Assembly (NCBI GenBank): GCA_009760885.1
Contig: CM019693.1
Span: forward strand, 47,250,751 to 47,314,750
Direction: 5' to 3'
DNA: 64,000 nucleotides
From: Achatina immaculata
Taxonomy: Eukaryota; Mollusca; Gastropoda; Stylommatophora; Achatinidae
How positions within the stretch are numbered: position 1 is the stretch's first letter; every line of letters starts with the position of its first letter. Both the position numbers and the translations under genes were made by a program. This document shows, piece by piece, positions 326 through 63,488 of the stretch. The notes beneath the pieces are model-generated. The model was given only the letters and a program-made list of their open reading frames with translations. It had not been told where the DNA came from and searched no databases.

Positions 326-567
326 AGAAAAAAAGAAGGAAGTTATGTTTCTGTACAGATTTTGTTAATCCAGTGGGAAAATGGCTAAGAGCATATTTTG
401 TTGCTGTTGGTTACTGGAAGGTTTGACAAGCATGTTAATGTTTCCAGATATTTGATCACTTCCTCTGTGTGTGTAGCTACTGCTATATGATGCATTTTGT
501 TTTGTTTTGTGCATGTTTCTGTGCTGTATTTTTTTTTACATTTCTCAAGCATTTTCACTGTTGTCAT

Positions 568-947
568 GAGGAGGTTCAACTTGTTGTTTTTTTAAGTGTT
601 TTTCTGTCCCATATTTACAAGGACTGTCCAAAAAGAAAGCATTGAGGAGGTTCAACTTGTTGTTTTTTTAAGTGTTTTTCTGTCCCATATTTACAAGGAC
701 TGTCCAAAAAGAAAGCATTGAGGAGGTTCAACTTGTTGTTTTTTTAAGTGTTTTTCTGTCCCATATTTACAAGGACTGTCCAAAAAGAAAGCATTGAGGA
801 GGTTCAACTTGTTGTTTTTTTAAGTGTTTTTCTGTCCCATATTTACAAGGACTGTCCAAAAAGAAAGCATTGAGGAGGTTCAACTTGTTGTTTTTTTAAG
901 TGTTTTTCTGTCCCATATTTACAAGGACTGTCCAAAAAGAAAGCAAT
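568..947. repeat. 76-bp minisatellite
   Basis: Five nearly identical 76-bp units, starting at 568, 644, 720, 796 and 872, each beginning GAGGAGGTTCAACTTG and ending GAAAGCATT. The very low divergence suggests recent expansion or homogenisation. Confidence 0.92.
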
Positions 948-1149
948 GACTTTTAAAAGAATATTTATTAATACACTTACAACTCACTTAGAGTCTCCTT
1001 AAGAGAGTATGTCAGTCCAAATGTTATTGCCATCTCTGGAACATGTCCCAGATCTTGTGCATGGGTCCAACAGTGAATTTATTCTCCTTCCTCTGTTATT
1101 TGAAATTGATGACCTCTCTGGGTGGATTTCAATGTTTAAAATAATAAGA

Positions 1150-1896
1150 AGGTTAGCAACGGTCAAATCTGGAGAGTAGGGTAGTAAAGTGACTAGAGTT
1201 ATGTTAACAGTGGTCAGATCTTGAGAGTAGGGTAGTGGGGTGACTAGAGTTATGTTAACAGTGGCCAGATCTTGAGAGTAGGGTAGTAAAGTGACTAGAG
1301 TTATGTTAACAGTGGCCAGATCTTGAGAGTAGGGTAGTGGGGTGATTAGAGTTATGTTAACAGCAGGCAAATCTGGAGAGTAGGGTGACTAGAGTTGTGT
1401 TAGCAGTGGCCAGATTGGAGAGTGGGGTGACTAGAGTTATGTTAACAGTGGGGAGATCTGGAGAGTAGGGTGAATAGAGTTATGTTAACAGCTGGCAGAT
1501 CTGGAGAGTGGAGTGCCTAGAATTATGTTAGCAGCAGCCAGATCTAGAGAGTAGGATGACTAGAATTATGTTAGTAGCAGCCAGATCTAGAGAGTAGGAT
1601 GACTAGAATTATGTTAGTAGCAGCCAGATCTGAAGAGTAGGATGACTAGAATTATGTTAGTAGCAGCCAGATCTAGAGAGTAGGATGACTAGAATTATGT
1701 TAGTAGCAGCCAGATCTGAAGAGTAGGATGACTAGAATTATGTTAGTAGCAGCCAGATCTGAAGAGTAGGATGACTAGAATTATGTTAGTAGCAGCCAGA
1801 TCTAGACAGTAGGATGACTAGAATTATGTTAGTAGCAGCCAGATCTGAAGAGTAGGATGACTAGAATTATGTTAGTAGCAGCCAGATCTAGAGAGT
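1150..1896. repeat. 43-46 bp minisatellite with AGATCT in each unit
   Basis: Units of about 43-50 bp in two subfamilies. The left ones contain GTAGGGTAGTAAAGTGACTAG and the right ones AGGATGACTAGAATTATG. Nearly all carry the palindrome AGATCT. No protein is encoded. Confidence 0.9.
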
Positions 1897-2127
1897 AGGA
1901 AGTTATGTTTCTGTACAGATTTTGTTAATCCAGTGGGAAAATGGCTAAGAGCATATTTTGTTGCTGTTGGTTACTGGAAGGTTTGACAAGCATGTTAATG
2001 TTTCCAGATATTTGATCACTTCCTCTGTGTGTGTAGCTACTGCTATATGATGCATTTTGTTTTGTTTTGTGCATGTTTCTGTGCTGTATTTTTTTTTACA
2101 TTTCTCAAGCATTTTCACTGTTGTCAT

Positions 2128-2506
2128 GAGGAGGTTCAACTTGTTGTTTTTTTAAGTGTTTTTCTGTCCCATATTTACAAGGACTGTCCAAAAAGAAAGC
2201 ATTGAGGAGGTTCAACTTGTTGTTTTTTTAAGTGTTTTTCTGTCCCATATTTACAAGGACTGTCCAAAAAGAAAGCATTGAGGAGGTTCAACTTGTTGTT
2301 TTTTTAAGTGTTTTTCTGTCCCATATTTACAAGGACTGTCCAAAAAGAAAGCATTGAGGAGGTTCAACTTGTTGTTTTTTTAAGTGTTTTTCTGTCCCAT
2401 ATTTACAAGGACTGTTCAAAAAGAAAGCATTGAGGAGGTTCAACTTGTTGTTTTTTAAGTGTTTTTCTGTCCCATATTTACAAGGACTGTCCAAAAAGAA
2501 AGCAAT
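2128..2506. repeat. 76-bp minisatellite, duplicate array
   Basis: Same 76-bp unit as at 568-947, again five copies, carried by the 1560-bp tandem duplication. One unit has lost a T in its T-run and one has a C-to-T change, so the arrays have barely diverged. Confidence 0.9.
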
Positions 2507-2704
2507 GACTTTTAAAAGAATATTTATTAATACACTTACAACTCACTTAGAGTCTCTTTAAGAGAATATGTCAGTCCAAATGTTATTTCCATCTCTGGAA
2601 CATGTCCCAGATCTTGTGCATGGGTCCAACAGTGAATTTATTCTCCTTCCTCTGTTATTTGAAATTGGTGACCTCTCTGGGTGGATTTCAATGTTTAAAA
2701 TAAT

Positions 2705-4168
2705 AAGAAGGTTAGCAACGGTCAAATCTGGAGAGTAGGGTAGTAAAGTGACTAGAGTTATGTTAACAGTGGCCAGATCTTGAGAGTAGGGTAGTAAAGT
2801 GACTAGAGTTATGTTAACAGTGGCCAGATCTTGAGAGTAGGGTAGTAAAGTGACTAGAGTTATGTTAACAGTGGCCAGATCTTGAGAGTAGGGTAGTGGG
2901 GTGACTAGAGTTATGTTAACAGTGGCCAGATCTTGAGAGTAGGGTAGTGGGGTGACTAGAGTTATGTTAACAGCTGGCAGATCTGGAGAGTAGGGTGACT
3001 AGAGTTATGTTAACAGTGGCCAGATCTTGAGAGTAGGGTAGTAAAGTGACTAGAGTTATGTTAACAGTGGGGAGATCTGGAGAGTAGGGTGAATAGAGTT
3101 ATGTTAACAGCTGGCAGATCTGGAGAGTGGAGTGCCTAGAATTATGTTAGCAGCAGCCAGATCTGGAGAGTAGGATGACTAGAATTATGTTAGTAGCAGC
3201 TAGATCTGAAGAGTAGGATGACTAGAATTATGTTAGTAGCAGCCAGATCTGGAGAGTAGGATGACTAGAATTATGTTAGTAGCAGCCAGATCTAGAGAGT
3301 AGGATGACTAGAATTATGTTAGTAGCAGCTAGATCTAGAGAGTAGGATGACTAGAATTATGTTAGTAGCAGCCAGATCTAGAGAGTAGGATGACTAGAAT
3401 TATGTTAGTAGCAGCCAGATCTAGAGAGTAGGATGACTAGAATTATGTTAGTAGCAGCTAGATCTAGAGAGTAGGATGACTAGAATTATGTTAGTAGCAG
3501 CCAGATCTAGAGAGTAGGATGACTAGAATTATGTTAGTAGCAGCTAGATCTGGAGAGTGGGATGACTAGAATTATGTTAGTAGCAGGCAGATCTGAAGAG
3601 TAGGATGACTAGAATTATGTTAGTAGCAGCCAGATCTAGACAGTAGGATGACTAGAATTATGTTAGTAGCAGCTAGATCTAGACAGTAGGATGACTAGAA
3701 TTATGTTAGTAGCAGCTAGATCTAGACAGTAGGATGACTAGAATTATGTTAGTAGCAGCCAGATCTAGACAGTAGGATGACTAGAATTATGTTAGTAGCA
3801 GCTAGATCTAGACAGTAGGATGACTAGAATTATGTTAGTAGCAGCTAGATCTAGACAGTAGGATGACTAGAATTATGTTAGTAGCAGCCAGATCTGAAGA
3901 GTAGGATGACTAGAATTATGTTAGTAGCAGGCAGATCTGGAGAGTGGGATGACTATAATTATGTTAGTAGCAGCCAGATCTGGAGAATAGGATGACTATA
4001 ATTATGTTAGTAGCAGCCAGATCTGGAGAATAGGATGACTAGAATTATGTTAGTAGCAGCCAGATCTAGACAGTAGGATGACTAGAATTATGTTAGTAGC
4101 AGGCAGATCTGGAGAGTGGGATGACTATAATTATGTTAGTAGCAGGCAGATCTGGAGAGTGGGATGAC
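2705..4168. repeat. 43-46 bp minisatellite, expanded copy
   Basis: Continuation of the same family in the second duplication copy, with over thirty units. Local higher-order blocks are visible (runs of units with TCTAGACAG against TCTAGAGAG), which suggests expansion by repeated unequal exchange. It ends about 140 bp before a GLOD4 exon. Confidence 0.9.
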
Positions 4169-4311: not shown

Positions 4312-4425
4312 TTGCCAAAACTGGAGGAAAAGATGAAGTCTGAGAATCAGACAATCCTAAAACCATTGGTTAGTCTGGACACACCAGGGAAAGCCACAGT
4401 TCAGGTTGTTATCTTGGCAGATCCT
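4312..4425 (+). CDS. GLOD4: GLOD4 internal exon (third from last)
   Basis: A 114-nt exon of 38 codons, phase 0 at both ends. Its 3' splice site is CCTCCAACAG and its donor CCT|GTGAGT. The translation reads [12 protein letters not shown]..., then [15 protein letters not shown] and ILADP. That last stretch matches the C-terminal half of animal GLOD4, a glyoxalase/VOC-fold protein whose reaction is not settled. The sequence continues in phase into the exon at 16594, which starts DGHEICYV, so ILADP|DGHEI is restored across an intron of about 12 kb. Upstream exons lie outside the window. The 3' half of this exon is copied at 5347. Confidence 0.93.
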
Positions 4426-4594
4426 GTGAGTTGAGATTTCTTTCTTTCTTCTTCTTCTACTTTGTGCTGGTATGTGTCAAATTCATATATCATTTTTATT
4501 GTCATTCATGTACACATATGTATTTTTAGTGTAATTCGCACAAAGACATGAATATGCAGTCTTATTCACATAAAGATATATGAACATGCCTAAT

Positions 4595-4711
4595 TCACTT
4601 GTCTTGTCTCCTTCATTGTATGGCTTTCAGTGTTGAGGAAACAAATAGACATCTTGATAGGGCTCTCCACTTTGCTTCATAAAATGGGATATTTAAGGTT
4701 TCTATAATTTC
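4595..4711 (-). mobile_element. RTE-6 LINE relic, C-terminal tip (left of RTE-3 insertion)
   Basis: GGGATATTTAAGGTTTCTATAATTT here matches the RTE-6 sequence at 53345 in SART3 intron 1. It continues after the RTE-3 insertion at 7313, where the same relic resumes (CTATCTCCATCTTATG). TAATTTC at 4705-4711 and 7313-7319 is the 7-bp target-site duplication. Confidence 0.7.
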
Positions 4712-4928
4712 ATCCTTGCTTATTTAACTTGTATACTGAAAATATAATGAGGAATGTTAGAGAAGATGTAGACAAAGAATATTACAATGTCATAGCAATT
4801 GGAGGTTATGAAATACCAGAGATTAGATATGCTGATGACACAGTGTTACTGTCCACAACACAAAAAGGAATGGAAAAATTAATTATGTCAGTCCGTCAGA
4901 ACAACGAAGAGCAAAACCTCTATCTTAA

Positions 4929-5346
4929 CTCTTCCCGTGCCCAAGAAAAAAACGCGGACGTTCCCATTCATGCCACACAAAAAGTGCGGGTCCTGATCTG
5001 TATAGTAGGTATAGTTGTAAAATGGAATGGAAAACAGTATTTACATGTACTTCCGTGTACTTATTATGTTTCAAAGTATAACTAAATGCATGAAAATTCC
5101 ATAAATGCAGAGTTGTTTTAGAAAAAAGAAGTAATGTGGTGTTTTTAGACAATGATTGTGCCCAGCTCACCATCGGCTAGGTCTAGATATGCACTATTTA
5201 CCATCTGAGATGTCTAGATCTACTTGTTGATCTCGTATTGTGATTCTATGTTGCATTCTCGCTAAATTAATGTCTGAAATAACATACTAACTATTTCTAC
5301 AGTCGTCTAATATGTCTAAATCTACTTAGGATACATTCAAAAGCAA
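4929..5346. mobile_element. Left part of the piggyBac-like MITE (duplicate)
   Basis: Starts with the same TIR after TTAA at 4925-4928 but lacks a right TIR. It is cut off by the duplication junction at 5346, not by transposition. Confidence 0.82.
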
Positions 5347-5405
5347 TGGTTAGTCTGGACACACCAGGGAAAGCCACAGTTCAGGTTGTTATCTTGGCAG
5401 ATCCT
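5347..5405 (+). pseudogene. GLOD4: Partial duplicate of the GLOD4 exon
   Basis: The last 59 nt of the exon at 4312-4425 are repeated here, from GGTTAGTCTGGACAC to the donor. The acceptor and first 55 nt are missing. It could act only if an AG just upstream (5342-5343) were used, which would change the frame. It is best read as a by-product of the 980-bp duplication. Confidence 0.85.
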
Positions 5406-6326
5406 GTGAGTTGAGATTTCTTTCTTTCTTCTTCTTCTACTTTGTGCTGGTATGTGTCAAATTCATATATCATTTTTATTGTCATTCATGTACACATATG
5501 TATTTTTAGTGTAATTCGCACAAAGACATGAATATGCAGTCTTATTCACATAAAGATATATGAACATGCCTAATTCACTTGTCTTGTCTCCTTCATTGTA
5601 TGGCTTTCAGTGTTGAGGAAACAAATAGACATCTTGATAGGGCTCTCCACTTTGCTTCATAAAATGGGATATTTAAGGTTTCTATAATTTCATCCTTGCT
5701 TATTTAACTTGTATACTGAAAATATAATGAGGAATGTTAGAGAAGATGTAGACAAAGAATATTACAATGTCATAGCAATTGGAGGTTATGAAATACCAGA
5801 GATTAGATATGCTGATGACACAGTGTTACTGTCCACAACACAAAAAGGAATGGAAAAATTAATTATGTCAGTCCGTCAGAACAACGAAGAGCAAAACCTC
5901 TATCTTAACTCTTCCCGTGCCCAAGAAAAAAACGCGGACGTTCCCATTCATGCCACACAAAAAGTGCGGGTCCTGATCTGTATAGTAGGTATAGTTGTAA
6001 AATGGAATGGAAAACAGTATTTACATGTACTTCCGTGTACTTATTATGTTTCAAAGTATAACTAAATGCATGAAAATTCCATAAATGCAGAGTTGTTTTA
6101 GAAAAAAGAAGTAATGTGGTGTTTTTAGACAATGATTGTGCCCAGCTCACCATCGGCTAGGTCTAGATATGCACTATTTACCATCTGAGATGTCTAGATC
6201 TACTTGTTGATCTCGTATTGTGATTCTATGTTGCATTCTCGCTAAATTAATGTCTGAAATAACATACTAACTATTTCTACAGTCGTCTAATATGTCTAAA
6301 TCTACTTAGGATACATTCAAAAGCAA
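5347..6326. repeat. 980-bp tandem duplication, copy 2
   Basis: Second copy of 4367-5346. It holds a partial GLOD4 exon at 5347-5405 with the same GTGAGT donor but without the original acceptor. Only a weak AAAAG precedes it, so it is probably skipped. Confidence 0.92.
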
Positions 6327-6601
6327 TGGGGTGGTCACAGGCCATGTCCATACCCCTATCCACATCGTCAAAAATTGAAAAATTTCGATGTTTCTCTTCC
6401 TTTTTCTCACTCGGCATCGCTCGTAACTAAGGACTCTTCCGCCATTTTGAAAAGTGTCAGCGGAAACGTGAACGAAATATGTACAATCTAAATGTTACAC
6501 CGGTTGGTTTTATTGAAACAAATGAATTGTCACTATAACGACTATGGCATGCAACTCAGTAACCGGAAATTCTCACTATAGCGACTATGGCACGGAAAGA
6601 G
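5909..6601. mobile_element. piggyBac-like non-autonomous MITE (693 bp)
   Basis: The ends are CTCTTCCCGTGCC (5909-5921) and GGCACGGAAAGAG (6589-6601), a 13-bp terminal inverted repeat with one mismatch. Both sides have TTAA (5905-5908 and 6602-6605), the signature target duplication of piggyBac transposases. Removing the element and one TTAA rejoins the RTE-3 reading frame. There is no transposase ORF inside. Its left 418 bp also occur at 4929-5346 because of the later 980-bp duplication. Confidence 0.85.
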
Positions 6602-11378: not shown

Positions 11379-13670
11379 TCTCTCTCTCTCTGAACCTTAA
11401 GTGCCCAGGGCACATGGGGCTTCCGCAAGGGTTTTCCACAAATGCCTGTCTTTCGCCTTTTTTTCTGCTCTTGCCCAGGTGAGCCCTCTATTGCTCAACA
11501 TCCTTTCTGTTGTTCTTCTCCATGTCTCTTTTGGTCTACCCTTACTTCTGCTCCCCTGTGGTGTCCATCTTAGTGCTATTTTTGGTAGTGAGTTGTCAGT
11601 CATTCGGAGCACATGTCCCAACCATCGCCATCGTCTTTCCTCAATAATTGTTGTCAGTGGTTTCATCTGCATTTCTGCCAATAAGATGTTATTTCTTATG
11701 GTGTTTGGCCAAAATATTTTTTTAATTCTACGTAAACATTTAGTCTGGAAAGAATTCAACTTGTTTTCTATGGTTTTGGTGATTTTCCAGCATTCACTTC
11801 CATAGAGTAGTACACTTAGAACATTACTCTTAAATATCCTGATTTTCATATTTATGCTTAGTTTATTTGATTTCCATATATTCTGCAGCATTGCAAAAGC
11901 CTGGTTTGCTTTAGTAAGTCTGCTGCTGATGTCCTCTGTGCTGTCTCCATTTTCTACTACTCTGCTGCCAAGGTATACAAATTCGTTGACCTCCTCCACT
12001 AACTTGTTATCTACTCTGAGTACATTTCTGTTGTTCACATTTTGCTTCATTAACTTTGTCTTTCCTACGTTGATCTTTAGTCCTATGTTGTTTGCATTCT
12101 GGGTTAACTTGTTTATTTTATCTTGCATATCTTTGTGACTGCTTGATAATAGACAAATGTCGTCCGCAAAGTCAAGGTCCTCCAGCACTGTGTTAAGGGT
12201 CCATTGTAATCCTCTGCGTTTGTCTGATGTTGCCTCCTTCATTAACCAGTCTACTGCCAAGATAAATAATGTTGGTGATAGTACACATCCCTGTTTCACT
12301 CCTGTTTGTACCCTAAAGCTGCTGGAGGTATGTTCTCCACAGATAACTTTGCACTGAAAACCCTCGTATAGGGCTTTGATTACATTAACTATTTTATGGG
12401 GGAGGCCATGCCATCTTAGGATTTTCCACAGTGCATCTCTGTTGACACTGTCAAAGGCTTTCTCAAAATCTATGAATAATGCATATGTTGTGCTATGCCA
12501 TTCATTTGCCTGTTCTAATATTTGTCTAAGTACAAATATATGGTCTATGCATGATCTTCCTTTCCTAAATCCTGCCTGCTCTTTCCGAAGTTTTTCCTCA
12601 AGTGTTGGTACAATTCTGTTGATGATTATTCTGCAAAATACTTTACTAGTGAGTGGCAGTAGGGTAATGCCTCTCCAGTTCCCGCAATATCTGAGGTCAC
12701 CCTTCTTTGGTAGTTTTACTATAAGACCAGTTTTCCACTCCTCTGGGGCTTTCTCTAAATCCCAAATTTGTTGTAATATCCGGCAAAGTTGTTTTGGTGT
12801 TTCTGTTTCTTCTGCTTTCAACATCTCAGCAGTCACTTCATCTTCACCTGGTGCCCTGTCTGATTTTAGCATCTTTATCGCCTCTTTTACTTCATTTATT
12901 GTTATTGGTCCTGTATTGATATTTAGTTCCGCTTTTGCTTCAGGTATATCTATTGCTTGTGCTGCTTGTGTTCTGTTTAGTAGGGTGTTAAAGTGTTCCC
13001 TCCATCTTTCAATTTTTTCTCTTTCTCCACTGACCAGTTGTCCATTTTGTGTTCTTACTGCACTTTCACATCTTGTATTGAAGTTACCTGTCATCTGCTT
13101 TGTGATTTTATATATGGTTTTCATGTCATTTGTATATGCTGCTTTCTCTGCTGTCTCTGCTAAGTTGTCATAATACTGACGTTTATCTTGACGGCATGAT
13201 TCCTTCACTTCTTTGTCTTTTTGTGCATAATTACTTAAAACTCGTTCTTTAAGCCGTTGTGATTTGGTGTTCAGTAATTTTTTCTTGATTTCTTTTCTTT
13301 GCTCTATCTTTTCCCATGTGGTCTCACTTATCCATTCCTCTTTTCTCCTTTTCCGATATCCCAGCACCTCTTTTGCTGTTTCCTGTAGTGTTTTATTGAA
13401 CTCTAATATGGACATTTCTGCTTCGTCTTGTAGGACACTGAAGCGGTTCTTAAGTATTATTGAGAATTCATTTCTTGTTTGCTGGTCTATCAGTTTTCTT
13501 GTATCAAAATGTATCTTTCTGTGTTCTCCGATTCTGGCTTTCCTTAATTTTAGTTTTATTTTTGCTACCAGAAGGTTGTGATCACTTCCTATATCTGCTC
13601 CTTTCCTTGCTCGCACATCTTGTAGTGACCGTTTCCACTTGTTGTTTATTAGTATGTGATCGATTTGGAT
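11379..13670 (-). mobile_element. RTE-1 LINE, 5'-truncated copy
   Basis: Minus-strand RTE retrotransposon that starts inside the endonuclease domain (QIDHILI) and runs to a (CT)n tail at 11379-11392, i.e. (AG)n on its own strand. The RT reading frame is complete. The right flank is the large duplicate (TTATTAGATTAG at 13671, same as 7903), so the insertion lies at the junction of two long repeats. Confidence 0.92.
11397..13670 (-). CDS. RTE-1 endonuclease-reverse transcriptase, C-terminal 75 percent
   Basis: An uninterrupted frame of about 757 codons; the 5' end is missing, so there is no genuine start. In order it shows the end of the AP-endonuclease domain (GSDHNLLVAKIKLKL), a linker, the RT fingers (LPKKGDLRYCGNWRGITLLP), AGFRKGRSCIDH, motif A (FIDFEKAFDSVNR), motif B (TGVKQGCVLSPTLF), motif C (LDFADDICLLSS), YLGSRVVENGD, a thumb with LYGSECWKIT, and the RTE C-terminus (GHVLRM...GRPKETWRRT). 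Proteins of this kind copy their RNA by target-primed reverse transcription. The lack of stops implies a young insertion, but without promoter and N-terminus it should be inactive. Confidence 0.9.
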   Translation of the reverse strand: MQIDHILINNKWKRSLQDVRARKGADIGSDHNLLVAKIKLKLRKARIGEHRKIHFDTRKLIDQQTRNEFSIILKNRFSVLQDEAEMSILEFNKTLQETAKEVLGYRKRRKEEWISETTWEKIEQRKEIKKKLLNTKSQRLKERVLSNYAQKDKEVKESCRQDKRQYYDNLAETAEKAAYTNDMKTIYKITKQMTGNFNTRCESAVRTQNGQLVSGEREKIERWREHFNTLLNRTQAAQAIDIPEAKAELNINTGPITINEVKEAIKMLKSDRAPGEDEVTAEMLKAEETETPKQLCRILQQIWDLEKAPEEWKTGLIVKLPKKGDLRYCGNWRGITLLPLTSKVFCRIIINRIVPTLEEKLRKEQAGFRKGRSCIDHIFVLRQILEQANEWHSTTYALFIDFEKAFDSVNRDALWKILRWHGLPHKIVNVIKALYEGFQCKVICGEHTSSSFRVQTGVKQGCVLSPTLFILAVDWLMKEATSDKRRGLQWTLNTVLEDLDFADDICLLSSSHKDMQDKINKLTQNANNIGLKINVGKTKLMKQNVNNRNVLRVDNKLVEEVNEFVYLGSRVVENGDSTEDISSRLTKANQAFAMLQNIWKSNKLSINMKIRIFKSNVLSVLLYGSECWKITKTIENKLNSFQTKCLRRIKKIFWPNTIRNNILLAEMQMKPLTTIIEERRWRWLGHVLRMTDNSLPKIALRWTPQGSRSKGRPKETWRRTTERMLSNRGLTWARAEKKAKDRHLWKTLAEAPCALGT

Positions 13671-15475: not shown

Positions 15476-15981
15476 AAAACAAAGGATCTGTTAATCACTC
15501 ACAGTCTGAAAACTAGTTGGTTGTATATTATCTGATATCCCTCATCGGTCATATTTTATGTTGTCTGATATCCCTCATCGGTCATATTTTATGTTGTCTG
15601 ATATCCCTCATCGGTCATATTTTATGTTGTCTGATATCCCTCATCAGTCATATTTTATGTTGTCTGGTATCTCTCATCATTCATACTTTATGTTGTCAGA
15701 TATCTCTCATCAGTCATACTTTATGTTGTCTGGTATCTCTCATCAGTCATACTTTATGTTGTCAGATATCTCTCATCAGTCATACTTTATGTTGTCAGAT
15801 ATCGCTCATCAGTCATACTTTATGTTGTCTATATCTGTCATTATGTTATGTCACATTAGTCTTGCAGTCATACTTTTAGTTGCCTGAGATCTCATTAGTC
15901 ATGAAGTCATATTTTATACTGTCTAATATTTATCATCAATCATACTTTATGTTGTCTGATACCTCATACATTTTGTGACAG

Positions 15982-16068
15982 GATGGACATGAGATCTGCT
16001 ATGTAGGAGCTGAAGCATTCCATCAGCTGTCTCAAGTAGACCCAAGCGCTGATAGTCTGCTAGATCAG
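15982..16068 (+). pseudogene. GLOD4: GLOD4 penultimate exon, duplicate with damaged donor
   Basis: Identical in coding content to 16594-16680 and preceded by the same acceptor TTTTGTGACAG. The donor has lost one G: the exon end reads AGATCAGTGAGA instead of AGATCAGGTGAGA. Splicing at the remaining GT would drop one exon base and break the frame into the last exon. Intact donors of the same type follow at 35-bp spacing. Including this copy together with the other would insert 29 extra residues. It is probably a decoy or non-functional copy; RNA is needed to tell. Confidence 0.8.
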
Positions 16069-16205
16069 TGAGATAACCAACACTGATAGTCTGCTAGATC
16101 AGGTGAGATAACCAGCACTGATAGTCTGCTAGATTAGGTGAGATAACCAGCACTGATAGTCTGCTAGATCAGGTGAGATAACCAGCACTGATAGTCTGCT
16201 AGATC
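16047..16205 (+). repeat. 35-bp splice-donor minisatellite, copy 1
   Basis: Five units of ACTGATAGTCTGCTAGATCA + GGTGAGATAACCAGC. The unit is the last 21 nt of the GLOD4 exon plus 14 nt of the intron, so each unit holds a CAG|GTGAGA (or TAG|GTGAGA) donor. The first, native donor is damaged. Confidence 0.9.
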
Positions 16206-16220
16206 AGGTGAGATAACCAG

Positions 16221-16450
16221 CATCGGTCATATTTTATGTTGTCTGATATCCCTCATCAGTCATATTTTATGTTGTCTGGTATCTCTCATCAGTCATACTT
16301 TATGTTGTCAGATATCTCTCATCAGTCATACTTTATGTTGTCTGGTATCTCTCATCAGTCATACTTTATGTTGTCAGATATCTCTCATCAGTCATACTTT
16401 ATGTTGTCAGATATCGCTCATCAGTCATACTTTATGTTGTCTATATCTGT
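16221..16450. repeat. 33-bp satellite, third copy
   Basis: Seven units of the 33-bp family, part of the 612-bp duplication, directly 5' of the intact penultimate GLOD4 exon. Confidence 0.9.
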
Positions 16451-16593
16451 CATTATGTTATGTCACATTAGTCTTGCAGTCATACATTTAGTTGCCTGAG
16501 ATCTCATTAGTCATGAAGTCATATTTTATACTGTCTAATATTTATCATCAATCATACTTTATGTTGTCTGATACCTCATACATTTTGTGACAG

Positions 16594-16680
16594 GATGGAC
16601 ATGAGATCTGCTATGTAGGAGCTGAAGCATTCCATCAGCTGTCTCAAGTAGACCCAAGCGCTGATAGTCTGCTAGATCAG
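16594..16680 (+). CDS. GLOD4: GLOD4 penultimate exon
   Basis: 87 nt, 29 codons, phase 0 on both sides, acceptor TTTTGTGACAG, donor GATCAG|GTGAGA. The translation begins [16 protein letters not shown] and ends [10 protein letters not shown]. It closely follows the GLOD4 C-terminal segment (DGHEICFVGDEAF in vertebrates), part of the last VOC/glyoxalase-like module. It joins in phase to ILADP upstream and AISADKSDEWF downstream. The donor is the first of at least six near-identical donors at 35-bp spacing. Reading through it would add Val-Arg and stop (GTG AGA TAA). Confidence 0.93.
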
Positions 16681-16880
16681 GTGAGATAACCAACACTGAT
16701 AGTCTGCTAGATCAGGTGAGATAACCAGCACTGATAGTCTGCTAGATTAGGTGAGATAACCAGCACTGATAGTCTGCTAGATCAGGTGAGATAACCAGCA
16801 CTGATAGTCTGCTAGATCAGGTGAGATAACCAGCACTGATAGTTTGCTAGATCAGGTGAGATAACCAGCACTGATAGTAA
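16660..16880 (+). repeat. 35-bp splice-donor minisatellite, main copy
   Basis: Six well-conserved 35-bp units, each with GATCAG|GTGAGA or a close variant, starting from the native exon end. Diverged units continue to 17170 and again at 18090-18235, on both sides of an inserted retroelement relic. The array therefore predates that insertion. Confidence 0.92.
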
Positions 16881-17170
16881 CAACATATTGATAGCAACAA
16901 TACACTGGTTGTCTACTGTATCAGATGAGGTAACTACCAGCAGTACACTGATAGTCTTCTAAACCATTTTGAGATAACTAGCAGTAATACACTGATATTC
17001 AGCTAAATCATTTCAAATAGTTATAATACACTTATATTCTGTTGCATACGATGAGATAACTAGCAACAATACATTGAAAGTCTGTGAAATTGGGTGAGAT
17101 AAGCAACAATACACTGATAGTCTACAAAATAGGTGAGATAACAAGCAACAATACACTGAGAGTCTACAAA
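16881..17170 (+). repeat. Diverged continuation of the 35-bp array
   Basis: Degenerate units of about 40 bp with GATAGTCT...GTGAGATAA(C/G)...CAACAATACACT. The drift from the sharp units near the exon is gradual. Confidence 0.75.
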
Positions 17171-18090
17171 CATTAGAACATGTGCTGTCAGCATGCAGAG
17201 TATCATTAGGTCAAGGACACTACACCTGGTGGCACAGCAGAGTGTTGCAAGAACTAGTAGCCATTGTAGACAGGGCAAAAAGATAAAGCAAATAACAGCA
17301 AAAGAGTTGAGATCCCACCTAAATACTTCATAGGCACTGGTACGACATCAGATATTGAAATCAGGGACATTCCCATACCATCACTGCTAGATAGTGGAAA
17401 TGACTGGGATGTGATAGTGGACCTACCAGGAAGAAGAGAATACCCAACTGCCATTAAGAACACAGGAATGCGTCCAGACATTGTAGTGTACTCCATAGAA
17501 AAACAGGAACTAATAATGATTGAGCTTACGGTTCCGTACGAAACAAGAATAGAGGAGCAACATCTGTTCAGATGTGAGAACTACAATGACCTGGTCAAGC
17601 AACTGAGGCAGGGGGCAGGAGTCAGGGCAAAAGTGATAGCTGTAGAAGTTGGAGCGAGAGGATTCATAGCAACAACAGCATACGACCTGTGTAAGCAATT
17701 GGGCATAAAGGGACAAGCAAGAGCAAGGGCATTGAAAAGCCTTTCAGAAACAGCAGAAAAGGATTCATGCTGGCTGTGGAGTATGCGAAACAAGCATTGA
17801 GAACATAAATAAATTCACTTGTCGCTGCCAACACCAGTCCTTCATGGCTAAAATCGCTAAAGACGCACTTCAAAGTGCAGTGCCAACTCAGTCCCGGGAC
17901 AAAAAAGCAACAACTCACAAGACCTCTGGGAGTCATGAGCCAGAGGGGCCCACCCCCCCCCCCTTAGAATGTCAGGAGTTTAATAGGGCCGAAACACTTG
18001 TCTGGGGGGGGGGGGGAATACTTCCTCTGATGATCTGAAAGAGTTGTGTTGTTGTTCCACTCTCTGTAGTAGAGAGTTTCCTGCATACTA
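17171..18090 (+). mobile_element. Non-LTR retroelement 3' part with PD-(D/E)XK-type C-terminus
   Basis: A 5'-truncated relic inside the 35-bp satellite. It begins in a coding stretch (LEHVLSACRVSLGQGHYTWW) just downstream of an RT domain and ends with a 3' region holding C-runs, G-runs and TACTTCCTCTGATGATCTG. The same 3' tail occurs at 40835-40915 and 43555-43630, and a second coding copy at 32091. The likely source is an R2/NeSL-like LINE that uses a restriction-like endonuclease. The clade is inferred. Confidence 0.72.
17290..17800 (+). CDS. Retroelement restriction-like endonuclease domain (partial)
   Basis: An open frame of about 170 codons follows a one-base frameshift near 17285 that separates it from LACRVSLGQGHYTWW upstream. 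It reads VEIPPKYFIGTGTTSD, then DWDVIVDLPGRREYP, MRPDIVVYS, LIMIELTVPYETRIEE, and ends AEKDSCWLWSMRNKH. RPD...(14 residues)...ELT fits the PD-(D/E)XK layout of restriction-like endonucleases that nick target DNA in R2-group elements. In other animals this domain also appears fused to RT-derived proteins. There is no start codon of its own, so it is a relic of a longer ORF. Confidence 0.7.
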
Positions 18091-18240
18091 CAAAACAGAT
18101 GAGGTAACAAGCAATAACACACTGAGAGTCTACAAAATAGGTGATTTAATAAGCAACAGTACACTTAGTCTATGAAATAGGTGAGATAACAGGCAACAAT
18201 ACACTGATAGTCTACAAAATAGGTGAGATTGGCTAATATA
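18091..18240 (+). repeat. Diverged 35-41 bp units, right side
   Basis: GAGAGTCTACAAAATAGGTGA units, the continuation of the exon-derived array on the far side of the inserted retroelement. Confidence 0.72.
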
Positions 18241-18420
18241 ATATACTGATTCACTGCTTCTTTTAAGTCACTTCAAAATTGTGAGTTAAGATGACAATAT
18301 CTTGTCACATTTTATTTATGTCATATGATATTGTCACCACAGGTACATGCTCTATAAGCTTACAGATTAATTTTGTGTGAATGGACATTTTGGTTACTTG
18401 ATTATCATGTTTGTCCCCAG

Positions 18421-18486
18421 GCAATATCTGCAGACAAAAGTGATGAGTGGTTTGCAAAGAAAGGCAAATCCAAAGAAAAGGCATAA
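18421..18486 (+). CDS. GLOD4: GLOD4 last coding exon
   Basis: Acceptor TTTGTCCCCAG. 21 codons, AISADKSDEWFAKKGK then SKEKA, and stop TAA at 18484-18486. ADKSDEWFAK is the conserved C-terminal end of GLOD4. It is in phase with the exon at 16594. It is the only host exon in the window not touched by a duplication. Confidence 0.94.
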   Translation, partial: AISADKSDEWFAKKGKSKEKA

Positions 18487-31685: not shown

Positions 31686-31917
31686 GGATGTGGGACTGAG
31701 AACTGTGTGTTTAATCTTTTCAACAAATAAATAAAATACCTCCACAGTGTCATATAACTAATATATTAATTTAAGGTGTCAAAAACTAATTTATTATTGT
31801 CATTCAGTCACATATTAAACATAATACTCCCAAAATGTCACAGACTAACGCAGTATTTAAACAGTGTTACAGAACTGATATAATACAGCCGCAGTGTTCA
31901 GTTTAAAAAAAAAAAAG

Positions 31918-32085
31918 TAAAATCCCCATTTCCATCCCATTTTAAGGCATATTGGGGATAGGGTGTTAGGCCCGTATTTTCCATGACCTTCGGCACATGA
32001 AAGTGTGATGTGGTCAGTATCACGCCTGGCCACTTTACCTTCCCAGATTTCCTTGGTACCCATTTTTAGAGGCTGAGTGAATCCC
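31918..32085 (-). mobile_element. SINE-like dispersed relic
   Basis: The minus strand contains CTAAAAATGGGTACC...GGTAAAGTGGCCAGGCG, a pattern I associate with a SINE-like repeat common in marine invertebrates. No pol III boxes were checked with confidence. A copy is at 33839-34006. Confidence 0.4.
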
Positions 32086-32530
32086 GCCAGTTAAAACAAG
32101 TGGCAGGAGTAAAGGCTAAACTGACAGCTGTAGAAGTAGGAGCTTAGGACTTGTGTGAGCAACTCGGTGTGTGAACAGCTCGGTGTGTGAGCAACTCGGT
32201 GTGTGAGCAACTCGGTGTGTGAGCAGCTCGGTGTGTGAGCAGCTCGGTGTGTGAGCAGCTCGGTGTGTGAGCAGCTCGGTGTGTGAGCAACTCGGTGTGT
32301 GAGCAGCTCGGTGTGTGAGCAGCTCGATGTGTGAGCAACTCGGTGTGTGAGCAACTCGGTGTGTGAGCAGCTCGGTGTGTGAGCAGCTCGGTGTGTGAGC
32401 AGCTCGGTGTGTGAGCAACTCGGTGTGTGTGAGCAGCTCGGTATAAAACAACAAGCAAGAACAAAAGCCTGTCAGAAACAGCAGAAAAGACTTCATGCTT
32501 GGACATGGGACACGAGCAGTAAGCAATGTT
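32086..32530 (+). mobile_element. Second restriction-like-endonuclease retroelement relic, split by its own minisatellite
   Basis: The left part translates to LKQVAGVKAKLTAVEVGA then DLCEQLGV, matching VKQLRQGAGVRAKVIAVEVGA...DLCKQLGI of the copy at 17411. After the 16-bp array the sequence resumes with IKQQARTKA and LHAWTWDTS, matching IKGQARARA and DSCWLWSM. The array therefore sits exactly inside the QLG codons. A copy is at 34007-34445. Confidence 0.8.
32150..32443. repeat. 16-bp minisatellite grown from retroelement coding sequence
   Basis: About eighteen units of GAGCARCTCGGTGTGT. The unit is the retroelement's own sequence at the DLCEQLG codons. The period is not a multiple of 3, so three minus frames stay open (AHTPSCSHTELLT-type peptides) as artefacts. 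Confidence 0.93.
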
Positions 32531-32549
32531 AAAAACTGAAATAGCTTAA

Positions 32550-32985
32550 TTTGTCACTTCTAACACCAGTCCTGTGTGACAGAATAGCTAAGATGTGTTT
32601 CAAGATTCTAGGTCATCTAACACCAGTCCTGTGTGACAGAGTAGCTAAGATGTGTTTCATGATTCTATGTCATGCAGGAGATGTCACTTCTAACACCAGT
32701 CCTGCGTGACAGAATAGCTAAGATGTTTTTTCAAGATTCTGTGTCACACAGGAGATGTCACTTCTAACACCAGTCCTATGTGACAGAGAAGCTAAGATGT
32801 GATTCAAGATTCTACATCACACAGGAGATGTCACTTCAACACCAGTCCTATGTGACAGAGTAGCTAAGATGTGTTTTAAGATTCTATGTCACACAGGAGA
32901 TGGACATCTAACACTAGTCCTATGTGACAAAGTAGCTAAGATGTGTTTCAAGATTCTATGTCACATGGAGGATAGTGGAGTAGAA
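32550..32985. repeat. 60-72 bp repeats from the same retroelement's 3' region
   Basis: Six or seven units of TCACTTCTAACACCAGTCCT + GTGTGACAGAATAGCTAAGA + TGTGTTTCAAGATTCT. The seed matches the 3' region of the relic at 17815-17870 (ACTTGTCGCTGCCAACACCA, GTCCTTCATGGCTAAAATCG). A copy is at 34470-34905. Confidence 0.85.
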
Positions 32986-33356
32986 AAATTAATTAATAAT
33001 TAACAATTTACAGGCTTCTGGGAGTCATGACCCAGAGAGTATGACAGAATACACCATGGTGCAAATCTAGCACGTTGACATTAGTGGAACAGTTTCATAC
33101 TGCCGTCATGACACTTCCGTGATTCTTGTGTTGTTTGATCTCATTTCCAACTCAGCAGAAATTCTGTTACTGGGCAATGCACAGAAATACAATAGACAGG
33201 CCAGGAAACAGTTAACTACACACATACACACACTGCCATTGGAGTTCATAAAGACTGAGACGTTGTTCCAAATATATAAATGAGTTTAATTCATGCCACA
33301 AGATGATGATGGAATGTATGAACTTGATAAAAAATATATGATGTTATATATCAAAC

Positions 33357-33836
33357 CCCCCGTGTGGTACCCGGGATCTACAAAGAATAGGACCACTGTA
33401 CCCTACCATGCATGATCGTAAAAGGCGACTAAGGAGGGTTCAGCATAGGGCCAGCAACCCTATCTGGTAAAAAAAACTATCAGACTGCTACAGAAACGGA
33501 AGCAAGGGAAAAAGCAAATGCAGGTGGAAGGAGAAATGCGAATCAGGAAACTGAACCCATGAAGGTTGTGGATGAAAGCCAGCCACTGGAAGTCCCCAGC
33601 CCGACTGCAGACCTCCTGGAACCTAAACATAAGATGCAAATAGGCAGCTGGAATGTAAGAACACTAAACCAGACTGGAAAACTAGCACAAACCATCAAGG
33701 AAATGCACAGATACAAACTAGACATACTAGGAATACAAGAAGCAAGATGGACAGGACAAGGCAGAAGGAAATTAACAACACAGCACACAGAAGATACAAT
33801 AATATGGTCAGGTAAAGAAGATCTTCATAAAGGAGG
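33357..33836 (+). mobile_element. RTE-1 5' end only (cut by duplication)
   Basis: Starts CCCCCCGTGTGGTACCCGG and includes the ATG region at 33559 and 93 codons of endonuclease N-terminus, then stops at the duplication junction 33836. A 5'-only LINE fragment cannot come from normal target-primed insertion; here the tandem duplication explains it. Confidence 0.85.
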
Positions 33837-35753
33837 AGTAAAATCCCCATTTCCATCCCATTTTAAGGCATATTGGGGATAGGGTGTTAGGCCCGTATTT
33901 TCCATGACCTTCGGCACATGAAAGTGTGATGTGGTCAGTATCACGCCTGGCCACTTTACCTTCCCAGATTTCCTTGGTACCCATTTTTAGAGGCTGAGTG
34001 AATCCCGCCAGTTAAAACAAGTGGCAGGAGTAAAGGCTAAACTGACAGCTGTAGAAGTAGGAGCTTAGGACTTGTGTGAGCAACTCGGTGTGTGAACAGC
34101 TCGGTGTGTGAGCAACTCGGTGTGTGAGCAACTCGGTGTGTGAGCAGCTCGGTGTGTGAGCAGCTCGGTGTGTGAGCAGCTCGGTGTGTGAGCAGCTCGG
34201 TGTGTGAGCAACTCGGTGTGTGAGCAGCTCGGTGTGTGAGCAGCTCGATGTGTGAGCAACTCGGTGTGTGAGCAACTCGGTGTGTGAGCAGCTCGGTGTG
34301 TGAGCAGCTCGGTGTGTGAGCAACTCGGTGTGTGAGCAACTCGGTGTGTGAGCAGCTCGGTGTAAAACAACAAGCAAGAACAAAAGCCTGTCAGAAACAG
34401 CAGAAAAGACTTCATGCTTGGACATGGGACACGAGCAGTAAGCAATGTTAAAAACTGAAATAGCTTAATTTGTCACTTCTAACACCAGTCCTGTGTGACA
34501 GAATAGCTAAGATGTGTTTCAAGATTCTAGGTCATCTAACACCAGTCCTGTGTGACAGAGTAGCTAAGATGTGTTTCATGATTCTATGTCATGCAGGAGA
34601 TGTCACTTCTAACACCAGTCCTGCGTGACAGAATAGCTAAGATGTTTTTTCAAGATTCTGTGTCACACAGGAGATGTCACTTCTAACACCAGTCCTATGT
34701 GACAGAGAAGCTAAGATGTGATTCAAGATTCTACATCACACAGGAGATGTCACTTCAACACCAGTCCTATGTGACAGAGTAGCTAAGATGTGTTTTAAGA
34801 TTCTATGTCACACAGGAGATGGACATCTAACACTAGTCCTATGTGACAAAGTAGCTAAGATGTGTTTCAAGATTCTATGTCACATGGAGGATAGTGGAGT
34901 AGAAAAATTAATTAATAATTAACAATTTACAGGCTTCTGGGAGTCATGACCCAGAGAGTATGACAGAATACACCATGGTGCAAATCTAGCACGTTGACAT
35001 TAGTGGAACAGTTTCATACTGCCGTCATGACACTTCCGTGATTCTTGTGTTGTTTGATCTCATTTCCAACTCAGCAGAAATTCTGTTACTGGGCAATGCA
35101 CAGAAATACAATAGACAGGCCAGGAAACAGTTAACTACACACATACACACACTGCCATTGGAGTTCATAAAGACTGAGACGTTGTTCCAAATATAAATGA
35201 GTTTAATTCATGCCACAAGATGATGATGGAATGTATGAACTTGATAAAAAATATATGATGTTATATATCAAACCCCCCGTGTGGTACCCGGGATCTACAA
35301 AGAATAGGACCACTGTACCCTACCATGCATGATCGTAAAAGGCGACTAAGGAGGGTTCAGCATAGGGCCAGCAACCCTATCTGGTAAAAAAAACTATCAG
35401 ACTGCTACAGAAACGGAAGCAAGGGAAAAAGCAAATGCAGGTGGAAGGAGAAATGCGAATCAGGAAACTGAACCCATGAAGGTTGTGGATGAAAGCCAGC
35501 CACTGGAAGTCCCCAGCCCGACTGCAGACCTCCTGGAACCTAAACATAAGATGCAAATAGGCAGCTGGAATGTAAGAACACTAAACCAGACTGGAAAACT
35601 AGCACAAACCATCAAGGAAATGCACAGATACAAACTAGACATACTAGGAATACAAGAAGCAAGATGGACAGGACAAGGCAGAAGGAAATTAACAACACAG
35701 CACACAGAAGATACAATAATATGGTCAGGTAAAGAAGATCTTCATAAAGGAGG
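33837..35753. repeat. 1.92-kb tandem duplication, copy 2
   Basis: Copy of 31916-33836, with small length differences in the 16-bp satellite. Confidence 0.92.
34071..34363. repeat. 16-bp minisatellite, duplicate array
   Basis: Same 16-bp family in the second 1.92-kb copy, with slightly different unit order at its right end. Confidence 0.92.

Positions 35754-38452: not shown

Positions 38453-38457
<5 letters not shown>
35273..38457 (+). mobile_element. RTE-1 LINE, nearly full length
   Basis: The 5' leader starts CCCCCCGTGTGGTACCCGGG, the ORF starts at 35476, and the 3' end GGCACTTAAGGTTCAG is followed by (AT)n at 38455-38505. It is inserted in a 70-bp satellite whose units continue at 38507-38740. 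Coding defects: one-base deletions near 36332 and 36685, and a five-base deletion near 38425 that sends the frame into the (AT)n tail. Confidence 0.9.
35476..36360 (+). CDS. RTE-1 endonuclease domain (frameshifted ORF, part 1)
   Basis: 294 codons. The AP-endonuclease motifs appear in order: GSWNVRTLNQTGKL (residues about 34-47), [64 protein letters not shown]. All expected catalytic motif residues (N, E, D-N, S-D-H) are present. The frame breaks after KIGEHR by loss of one A in an A-run (compare the intact copy at 11397-13670). A sequencing error in the homopolymer is possible. Confidence 0.9.
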   Translation: MKVVDESQPLEVPSPTADLLEPKHKMQIGSWNVRTLNQTGKLAQTIKEMHRYKLDILGIQEARWTGQGRRKLTTQHTEDTIIWSGKEDLHKGGVALIITTEASRALLKWTPINERLLYARFNSRFTKLSIIVCYAPTEAAEEELKEDFYNSLQATVETIPKHDMLLILGDFNAKVGEGNEDRRRIMGREGIREINENGERLCSFCEENMMTIGGTIFQHKNIHKVTWRSPDKTIENQIDHILINNKWKRSLQDVRARKGADVGSDHNLLVAKIKLKLRKAKIGEHRRYILIQAN

Positions 38458-45293: not shown

Positions 45294-45772
45294 ATATTGT
45301 CTGAGAAACGCCCTTCCTATCTGTTCATCTAAACAGACTTTATCACCCTCGCTTTCGTCTTTGGCGTGCTCTTCATTCTCAGAGACACTCGCCAGAAGAG
45401 ACGCAGCGCCTTGTCAGTTGAAACTTCCCGTGAAATTGTCTGCCAGCATCGCCTTCGAGACTCAGTTTCTAGAGATTCAAATTCGCCAGTCGCTTTCTTC
45501 ATATCCTTTTCCAGTACTGTCCATAGTACCACTTTTTTGCCCCAACTTCGCCATCATTCTCTTATTCGCCCATGCCAATTTGATCTCGTCAGTCCATCAA
45601 AGAAGCTTACACCATTGTCTTTAATGCCAGCGTGACCGGTTATTCTCCCCTCACAACATATACCATGTATGATGTCTGATAATAACGTATAGATGGACAT
45701 ACACAGCAACAAAGCAGAACGTATAGATAGACACACACAGTTACAAAGCACAACCTATATATAGTCATACAC

Positions 45773-52765: not shown

Positions 52766-52860
52766 CGTACAAGTACAAAGTATAACGTTTAGATAGACAT
52801 ACACAGCAACAAAGCACAACGTATAGATAGACATACTCTCTTGTACTGGAGAAAAATAAC

Positions 52861-58327: not shown

Positions 58328-58454
58328 ATATCTGAGAACCCATACCTATATGACAGTCATACAGAACGAATTAAGATCTTGCGCAAGATGGGTGACCTAC
58401 ATAGACTTCGAGAAGTACGAGAAGAGATGGCATGCTACTTTCCTCTCACTGAAG
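58328..58454 (+). CDS. SART3: SART3 exon 2, copy 1
   Basis: 127 nt, acceptor GCTATATATATAG, donor CTGAAG|GTAAAC, phase 0 in and phase 1 out. The translation begins ISENPYLYDSHTERIKILRK and ends REVREEMACYFPLTE. It matches the first HAT repeat region of SART3 (human: YDYNCHVDLIRLLR...MSEIFPLTEELWLEW). HAT repeats form a helical scaffold that binds USP15/USP4 and U4/U6 components in vertebrates. The donor is the first of about twelve such sites in a 29-bp array. A copy is at 60039. Confidence 0.88.
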
Positions 58455-58790
58455 GTAAACTTGCTACTTTCCTCTCACTGAAAGTAAACTTTCTACTTTC
58501 CTGTCATTGAAGGTAAGCTTGCTACTTTCCTGTCATTGAAGGTAAGTTTGCTACTTTCCTGTCACTGAAGGTAAGTTTGCTACTTTCCTGTCACTGAAGG
58601 TAAACTTGCTACTTTTCTCTCACTGAAGGTAAGCTTGCTACTTTCCTGTCACTGAAGGTAAACTTGCTACTTTCCTGTCACTGAAGGTAAACTTGCTACT
58701 TTTCTCTCACTGAAGGTAAACTTGCTACTTTTCTCTCACTGAAGGTAAAGTTGCTACTTTTCTCTCACTGAAGGTAAACTTGTTCCGTAC
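58432..58790 (+). repeat. 29-bp splice-donor minisatellite, copy 1
   Basis: About twelve units of TGCTACTTTCCTCTCACTGA + AGGTAAACT. The unit starts in the coding end of SART3 exon 2 (CYFPLTE) and contains the donor. Several later units read GAAG|GTAAGT or GTAAGC, closer to the donor consensus than the native GTAAAC. Confidence 0.93.
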
Positions 58791-60038: not shown

Positions 60039-60165
60039 ATATCTGAGAACCCATACCTATATGACAGTCATACAGAAAGAATTAAGATCTTGCGCAAGAT
60101 GGGTGACCTACATAGACTTCGAGAAGTACGAGAAGAGATGGCATGCTACTTTCCTCTCACTGAAG
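60039..60165 (+). CDS. SART3: SART3 exon 2, copy 2
   Basis: Same as 58328-58454 apart from one synonymous change (CGA to AGA, Arg). Acceptor TTGCTATAG and donor CTGAAG|GTAAAC are intact. Because the exon is 127 nt, including both copies would shift the frame, so they should be mutually exclusive in a productive mRNA. Confidence 0.87.
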
Positions 60166-60555
60166 GTAAACTTGCTACTTTCCTCTCACTGAAAGTAAGA
60201 TTGCTACTTTCCTGCCACTGAAGGTAAGCTTGCTACTTTCCTGTCACTGAAGGTAAGTTTGCTACTTTCCTGTCTCAGAAAGTAAACTTTCTACTTTCCT
60301 GTCATTGAAGGTAAGCTTGCTACTTTCCTGTCACTGAAGGTAAGTTTGCTACTTTCCTGTCACTGAAGGTAAGCTTGCTACTTTCCTGTCACTGAAGGTA
60401 AACTTGCTACTTTTCTCTCACTGAAGGTAAGCTTGCTACTTTCCTGTCACTGAAGGTAAACTTGCTACTTTCCTGTCACTGAAGGTAAACTTGCTACTTT
60501 TCTCTCACTGAAGGTAAACTTGCTACTTTTCTCTCACTGAAGGTAAACTTGCTCC
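60143..60555 (+). repeat. 29-bp splice-donor minisatellite, copy 2
   Basis: About fourteen units, each with a GAAG|GTAA(A/G) donor-like site; two units read GAAAGTAA. It is longer than copy 1, so it has expanded or contracted since the duplication. Confidence 0.93.
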
Positions 60556-63293: not shown

Positions 63294-63403
63294 CAGAAAG
63301 ATTAAATAGTTCTTTGTCCTTATCACAGAACTGTGGTTAGATTAGCTACAGAAAGATTAAATAGTTCTTTGTCCTTATCACAGAACTGTGGTTAGATTAG
63401 CTA
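63294..63403 (+). repeat. 55-bp duplication across the SART3 exon 3 acceptor
   Basis: CAGAAAGATTAAATAGTTCT ... AACTGTGGTTAGATTAGCTA occurs twice in tandem (63294-63348 and 63349-63403). It contains polypyrimidine sequence, the acceptor TTATCACAG and the first 20 or so bases of exon 3, so two identical acceptors lie 55 bp apart. Confidence 0.92.
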
Positions 63404-63488
63404 CATGATGAGCTTCCTTTGGTTTCTGATGATAATGAACGGAAGAAAGTGGAGGAACTGTTTGAGAAAGCATTCAGAGACTATCAGT
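63384..63488 (+). CDS. SART3: SART3 exon 3 with in-frame TAG
   Basis: 105 nt, acceptor TTATCACAG, donor CAGT|GTAAGT. Joined to exon 2 (phase 1) it reads EELWLD, then stop TAG at 63398-63400, then LHDELPLVSDDNERKKVEEL and FEKAFRDYQ. Human SART3 has EELWLEWLHDEI at this place, so the TAG replaces a Trp codon (TGG to TAG) while the rest of the exon is well conserved. Possible readings: a recent null or pseudogene allele, a base error, or A-to-I editing that would restore Trp. The remaining exons are beyond the window. Confidence 0.85.

What the first reader, a model, noticed from the sequence alone, without database searches (positions are those of the whole stretch)
16660..17170. A second, independent splice-donor minisatellite in GLOD4
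The 35-bp unit is the last 21 nt of the penultimate GLOD4 exon plus 14 nt of intron, repeating CAG|GTGAGA six times sharply, and then more diverged for over a kilobase (also 18091-18240). Reading through the first donor adds Val-Arg-stop. The same kind of array in two unrelated genes in one window suggests that exon-intron borders seed minisatellites in this genome. I know of no named class for this.
Basis: partly seen in the sequence, partly recalled or inferred. Interest (0 to 1): 0.78.

Follow-up and report, generated by a model that had tools for sequence, protein, structure and literature searches.

The report
Splice-donor minisatellite in snail GLOD4
A short stretch of DNA spanning the end of a coding segment and the start of the next intron has been copied head to tail in a land-snail gene; this kind of repeat is already known from lancelets as a "mirage", and meeting it in a mollusc suggests that the kind is more widespread.

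Summary
The array is real. A 35-bp unit (24 nt of exon end plus 11 nt of intron start in TRF's phase) stands six times at 16657-16878, on the penultimate coding exon of GLOD4 of a probable stylommatophoran land snail. About ten diverged units follow (16895-17170 and 18092-18231), split by a ~0.9-kb insertion. Exon and array are duplicated nearby (15982-16222), where the native donor has lost one G. SART3 in the same window has a like array at a donor and a 2 x 55 bp repeat across an acceptor.

The claim that exon-intron borders seed minisatellites is not supported here. Arrays cover 28.6% of the window, and 3 of 9 identified junctions lie in them against 2.49 expected by rotation. Donor motifs in the old units are no better conserved than the rest of the unit.

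Best reading: ordinary, unselected minisatellite growth, tolerated because the original donor stays outermost and the added units are intronic. The genome-wide test could not be run: the genome search did not complete in nine tries.

The parts
4312..4425 (+). GLOD4 exon before the array exon (LPKLEEKM...VILADP), donor CCT|GTGAGT
   Evidence: tblastn with recalled human GLOD4, 80% identity, E 3.6e-14; sequence
15982..16068 (+). copy of the GLOD4 penultimate exon, identical over 87 nt; native donor reads CAG|TGAGAT (one G missing), and reading on gives a stop after LLDQ
16045..16222 (+). copy of the 35-bp array: first unit 34 nt, then four full units, with the same order of unit variants as the main array
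   Evidence: TRF; unit list
16594..16680 (+). GLOD4 penultimate coding exon, 29 codons, phase 0-0
   Evidence: PDB 9csj match; tblastn; sequence
16657..16878 (+). 35-bp splice-donor minisatellite, six full units plus a partial one; unit = 24 nt exon end + 11 nt intron start
   Evidence: TRF 6.3 copies, 96%; unit list
16895..17170 (+). older diverged units of the same family, left part
   Evidence: TRF rows 16926-17013 and 17025-17165; profile matches; alignment
17171..18091 (.). insertion that splits the old array; ORF 17270-17797 (176 aa) without a Pfam match
   Evidence: edges inferred from the broken unit
18092..18231 (+). older diverged units, right part
   Evidence: TRF row 18088-18229; profile match 18202-18229; alignment
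18421..18486 (+). GLOD4 last coding exon (AISADKSDEWFAKKGKSKEKA, stop), outside the array; acceptor AG 18419-18420
58328..58454 (+). SART3 exon ending ACT GAA G|GTAAAC
   Evidence: PDB 5jjx/5jpz/5ctq SART3 matches; relatives; sequence
58433..58782 (+). 29-bp splice-donor minisatellite of SART3, 12.1 copies; unit = 22 nt exon end + 7 nt intron start
   Evidence: TRF; donor list
60039..60553 (+). second copy of the SART3 exon and its array (array 60144-60553, 14.1 copies)
63294..63405 (+). 2 x 55 bp repeat, 100% matches, across the acceptor of the next SART3 exon (63384-63488)
   Evidence: TRF; tblastn; sequence

Best explanation
It is a 'mirage': a minisatellite whose unit straddles an exon-intron border, here the donor of the penultimate GLOD4 exon. 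A short tandem duplication once copied the last ~24 exonic and ~11 intronic nt, and ordinary minisatellite turnover (slippage or unequal exchange) enlarged it. Because added units lie after the original donor they are intronic. The exon, its frame and one intact donor stay in place, so the growth is not removed by selection, whereas a repeat of similar length inside an exon would disrupt the protein. Units far from the exon have drifted, units near it are young and alike. Splicing mostly uses the first donor; use of a later donor would add Val-Arg-stop and drop the last 21 residues. Shown: array, gene, frame, age gradient, lack of special donor conservation, lack of excess at junctions in this window. 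Inferred: the growth mechanism, tolerance by selection, and which donor is used.
For: Exon and last exon join in frame at the first donor and match GLOD4. Of the 120 listed relatives, 119 carry a WF or WY in the last 40 residues as in the full C-terminus, and 0 of 120 end in VR, so the outermost donor is the ancestral one. Sharp units sit next to the exon and diverged units further in, cut by a later insertion. Old units keep the donor no better than other positions: mean agreement 7.44 of 10 for the donor 9-mer against 6.96 for the rest (7.87 without three end columns that none match), column permutation P 0.39, rank 15 of 27 windows, GT kept in 5 of 10. Arrays cover 28.6% of the window and junction overlap equals the rotation mean. 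With local direct duplications added, 55.4% of the window is tandemly repeated at some scale and 5 of 9 junctions fall in it. Lancelet mirages behave the same way: many repeats carry splice signals yet regular splicing was seen (PMC3087553; PMC3902484).
Against: No RNA evidence here. The six GLOD4 donors are nearly equal in score (five at 7.1, one at 4.8), and in SART3 the native donor (3.1) is weaker than 5 of 11 downstream ones (up to 8.0), with a recalled human-like matrix, so exclusive use of the first donor is not obvious. Two donor arrays and one acceptor repeat among nine junctions is a small sample, and 2 of 4 donors is above the mean of 1.11, so junction bias cannot be excluded.
Confidence: 0.72

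Rival explanations
1. Exon-intron borders actively seed minisatellites in this genome, for example through pausing, R-loops or a sequence property of donors.
For: Two unrelated genes in one window have donor-spanning arrays with similar exonic share (24 and 22 nt), and a third junction has a 2-copy repeat. Donors overlapped: 2 of 4 against 0.68 expected for arrays of period 20 or more and 6 or more copies. Units with AGGTRAG on the + strand are seen in 4 merged array loci against 0.31 expected, though all four are the GLOD4 family.
Against: 3 of 9 junctions in arrays against a rotation mean of 2.49; 47.5% of rotations reach it; for the strictest class 11.5% reach the donor count. The other array loci of the window have no exon that I could find. 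Survivorship gives the same picture: junction-spanning repeats are the exon-touching kind that leaves the mRNA intact.
Confidence: 0.12
2. The array is kept for a purpose: a set of alternative donors that yields a C-terminally shortened GLOD4 or lowers its level through premature stops.
For: Each later donor adds Val-Arg-stop. By coordinates the stop would lie 26 nt before the junction for donor 2 and 61 nt for donor 3, so products from donor 3 on could be decay targets by the vertebrate 50-55 nt rule (rule recalled).
Against: Donor motif is not conserved above the rest of the unit in the ten old units and GT is lost in 5 of 10. The human C-terminal residues of GLOD4 are kept across the listed relatives. 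Same arrangement in SART3 shifts the frame or hits a stop, which looks like a cost rather than a use.
Confidence: 0.06
3. The duplicated exon plus array, and perhaps unit counts, are products of the assembly: two alleles placed in tandem, or misjoins in repeats.
For: The window is full of close direct duplications at 95.6-100% identity, one of 1755 bp exactly abutting and identical. Land-snail heterozygosity is about 1% (Candidula 1.09%, PMC8496239 passage). The extra GLOD4 exon copy has a broken donor, and SART3 carries a stop where 4 of 4 relatives have Trp. In PMC3087553 a lancelet mirage was mis-assembled in the draft genome.
Against: It cannot explain the array itself: it occurs with different unit counts in two copies, its old units are diverged, and a like array is in another gene.
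Confidence: 0.1

Closest known systems
Lancelet 'mirages' (Adh3, troponin C, retinol dehydrogenase-type and other loci cited, globins BflGb6 and BflGb9, PGBD5)
   Same: Minisatellite-like tandem repeats that span an exon-intron boundary, at 5' or 3' borders, with many but not all units carrying splice signals; copy number differs between haplotypes (6 and 3 in BflGb6); Adh3 units 10-72 bp (PMC3087553 passages; PMC3902484 passage). Here 35, 29 and 55 bp, donor and acceptor, copy counts differ between the two local copies.
   Different: Reported in lancelets; this window is a gastropod. Regular splicing was shown there by RT-PCR; not testable here. PMC3902484 describes the 60 and 108 bp PGBD5 repeats as imperfect.
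Human interferon-induced 6-16 (IFI6) minisatellite with multiple splice donor sites (Turri, Cuin and Porter 1995)
   Different: There the donors are provided in the transcript; here their use is unknown. The paper itself is not held.
Intron gain by tandem genomic duplication of AGGT-containing sequence (e.g. potato RdRp case, PMC4974935; listing only)
   Same: Tandem duplication that copies an AG|GT site.
   Different: Here no new intron is made: the intron's acceptor (18419-18420) lies outside the array.
Internal tandem repeats that modify exon-intron structure in human segmental duplications (PMC2812944 passages)
   Same: About 30-bp units, some at exon-intron boundaries, in duplicated gene regions.
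   Different: There mostly exonic variation between paralogues with novel introns inferred; here donor repeats in intron space.

Membership tests
Mirage (boundary-spanning minisatellite) | Tandem repeat whose unit contains an exon-intron boundary | tested here: met
   Unit = 24 nt exon + 11 nt intron of GLOD4; 22 + 7 in SART3
Mirage (boundary-spanning minisatellite) | Many but not all units carry splice signals | tested here: met
   Six of six sharp units have GT at the donor position; 5 of 10 old units do
Mirage (boundary-spanning minisatellite) | Copy-number instability | tested here: inconclusive
   5.1 against 6.3 units in GLOD4 and 12.1 against 14.1 in SART3 between local copies that may be alleles or paralogues
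Mirage (boundary-spanning minisatellite) | Regular splicing not disturbed | not testable with these tools
   No RNA data; reported for lancelet Adh3 and globins
IFI6-type multiple-donor minisatellite | Several repeat donors used in transcripts | not testable with these tools
   No RNA data
Intron gain by AGGT tandem duplication | New intron whose donor and acceptor both come from the duplicated unit | tested here: not met
   Acceptor at 18419-18420 lies outside the array; the unit brings donors only
GLOD4 | Sequence match over the C-terminal exons | tested here: met
   PDB 9csj E 4.2e-16; 86% to two land-snail proteins over the 88-residue tail

The most novel reading that the evidence does not exclude
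Boundary-spanning minisatellites are a recurrent feature of land-snail genomes, arising independently of lancelets wherever local tandem duplication is rampant, and in some genes (SART3) they line up decoy donors stronger than the true one, so that these snails must rely on a first-donor or exon-definition rule that makes splicing choice directly testable with natural arrays.
Probability: 0.2. Interest if true: 0.6.

Novelty: new member of a known kind. Interest (0 to 1): 0.36.

Why it matters
Mirages have, in the papers I could search, been described in lancelets. Finding the same structure in two genes of one 64-kb snail window, in a region where about a quarter to a third of the bases lie in tandem arrays, suggests that they follow from high tandem-duplication load plus selection rather than from a lancelet peculiarity. 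Arrays of equal or stronger donors behind a native one are natural tests of how the spliceosome chooses among donors, and of whether such repeats feed intron sliding or gain.

Tried and rejected
Genome-wide scan of junction-spanning units: not possible. Reverse transcriptase search for the species: hits at most 61% identical, almost all from unnamed contigs, not useful for naming the species. Lancelet origin was considered because of the mirage papers and rejected: Branchiostoma belcheri GLOD4 is 74% identical over the tail against 86% for two stylommatophoran snails. Selection on donors in old units: tested, no sign. A regulated C-terminal isoform: no sign in protein records, 0 of 120 listed end in VR, but nearly all of these are other species. 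Pfam for the ORF in the insertion: no match. One search used junction coordinates that were 1-2 nt off for three of nine junctions (16681, 18423, 63490); the test asks for 5 nt on either side, and the corrected positions give the same 3 of 9 in arrays. One search left out duplication pairs shorter than 400 bp, over 7 kb apart, under 95% identity or more than 80% array, which drops the SART3 pair. Junctions of the duplicate exon copies were left out of the nine.

Full report
WHAT IS THERE. The 35-bp array at 16657-16878 is real: TRF gives 6.3 copies at 96%, and none of 20 dinucleotide shuffles gives anything of comparable score. The six full units read AGCGCTGATAGTCTGCTAGATCAG|GTGAGATAACC and near-copies. 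The first 24 nt of the first unit are the end of the exon 16594-16680 (87 nt, 29 codons, [29 protein letters not shown]), which together with the exon 18421-18486 matches GLOD4 in the PDB (9csj_A, E 4.2e-16; sequence). tblastn with a recalled human GLOD4 also finds the exon before it at 4312-4425. The exons join in phase 0 at the first donor.

OLDER UNITS. Further into the intron about ten diverged units follow. TRF sees them as rows 16926-17013, 17025-17165 and 18088-18229 with periods 42-44. A profile of the sharp units matches two of them well (17112-17142, E 3.9e-5; 18202-18229, E 1.2e-3), others weakly. They carry a 7-nt longer spacer. A stretch of about 0.9 kb (17171-18091) interrupts them between CTACAAA and CTACAAA; it holds a 176-aa ORF with no Pfam match.

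DUPLICATE. 15600-16222 and 16212-16835 are 99% alike. Both hold the exon (identical over 87 nt) and the array with the same order of unit variants, so array growth came before the duplication. In the upstream copy the native donor has lost one G (CAG|TGAGAT) and reading on gives a stop directly after LLDQ.

SECOND GENE. The exon 58328-58454 matches SART3 in the PDB (5jjx E 1.8e-4), and a search by the window's own SART3 residues finds Elysia and Aplysia SART3-like proteins (69% and 68%). Its last 22 nt plus 7 intronic nt form a 29-bp array of 12.1 copies (58433-58782), with a second copy of exon and array downstream (60144-60553, 14.1 copies). The next SART3 exon has a perfect 2 x 55 bp repeat across its acceptor (63294-63405).

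WHICH ORGANISM. Over the 88-residue GLOD4 tail the two best of 974 proteins are Candidula unifasciata and Bradybaena similaris, both 86%, both Stylommatophora. A lancelet (B. belcheri) is at 74%. I infer a stylommatophoran land snail or close kin; the species is not known.

IS IT MORE THAN CHANCE THAT ARRAYS SIT ON JUNCTIONS? I could identify nine independent junctions (five of GLOD4, four of SART3; duplicate copies left out). Three lie in arrays. Arrays cover 28.6% of the window, and over all rotations of the window the mean is 2.49, with 47.5% reaching 3. For donors alone it is 2 of 4 against 1.11 (31.3% reach it); for long arrays only (period 20 or more, 6 or more copies) 2 of 4 against 0.68 (11.5%). 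Adding local direct duplications, 55.4% of the window is tandemly repeated and 5 of 9 junctions fall in it. So this window gives no support for seeding at borders, though nine junctions cannot exclude a modest bias. There may be exons of other genes that I did not find.

IS THE DONOR UNDER SELECTION IN THE REPEATS? In the ten old units the donor 9-mer agrees with the sharp consensus in 7.44 of 10 on average, the rest in 6.96 (7.87 if three end columns that none match are left out). Column permutation gives P 0.39, and the donor ranks 15th of 27 nine-column windows. Five of ten keep the GT. This looks like neutral decay.

CONSEQUENCE IF LATER DONORS ARE USED. In GLOD4 each adds Val-Arg-stop and drops the last 21 residues. 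By coordinates the stop lies 26 nt before the junction for donor 2 and 61 nt for donor 3. In SART3 10 of 11 later donors add an in-frame stop within the extension and the other shifts the frame; with a recalled human-like matrix the native donor (3.1) is weaker than 5 of the 11 (up to 8.0), which makes splicing choice there an interesting test. Among the 120 listed GLOD4 relatives none ends in VR and 119 keep the WF/WY of the usual C-terminus.

WHAT IS KNOWN. There is one. [quoted passage not shown] A passage of PMC3902484 adds troponin C and PGBD5. [quoted passage not shown] In the ten searches I made I met no report of mirages in a mollusc; the one gastropod paper that one search returned uses 'minisatellite' only in a reference title. 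The library lacks most subscription papers.

VERDICT. A mirage in a new phylum: a new member of a known kind. The most likely account is tolerated, unselected minisatellite growth. Junction-spanning repeats are the exon-touching repeats that leave the mRNA intact, so selection alone can make arrays appear to favour borders (inference). The close duplications, the broken donor of the extra exon, and the SART3 stop also warn of allelic or assembly effects.

Noticed in passing
63384-63488: The SART3 exon reads ELWLD-stop-LHDE; both 55-bp repeat copies have TAG where 4 of 4 relatives found have Trp. Allele, pseudogene or sequence error.
   Followed up: partly
334-3476, 4359-6329, 31916-35757, 45294-48803, 52385-56750, 58076-61632: Close direct duplications of about 1-2.3 kb at 94-100% identity, one of 1755 bp abutting and identical; recent tandem duplication or alleles placed in tandem by the assembly.
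   Followed up: partly
4359-5349 and 5339-6329: A 980-bp tandem duplication begins inside a GLOD4 exon and so repeats its donor as well.
   Followed up: partly
17270-17797: 176-aa ORF inside the insertion that splits the old array; no Pfam match. It looks like part of a mobile element (impression only).
   Followed up: no
11400-13670 (-), 36179-38455 (+), 48655-51336 (+): LINE-type reverse transcriptases, two near-identical copies in opposite orientation and one longer ORF with an endonuclease domain.
   Followed up: no
whole window: 28.6% of bases lie in tandem arrays of period 6 or more, 58 merged loci of period 15 or more, a very high load.
   Followed up: partly
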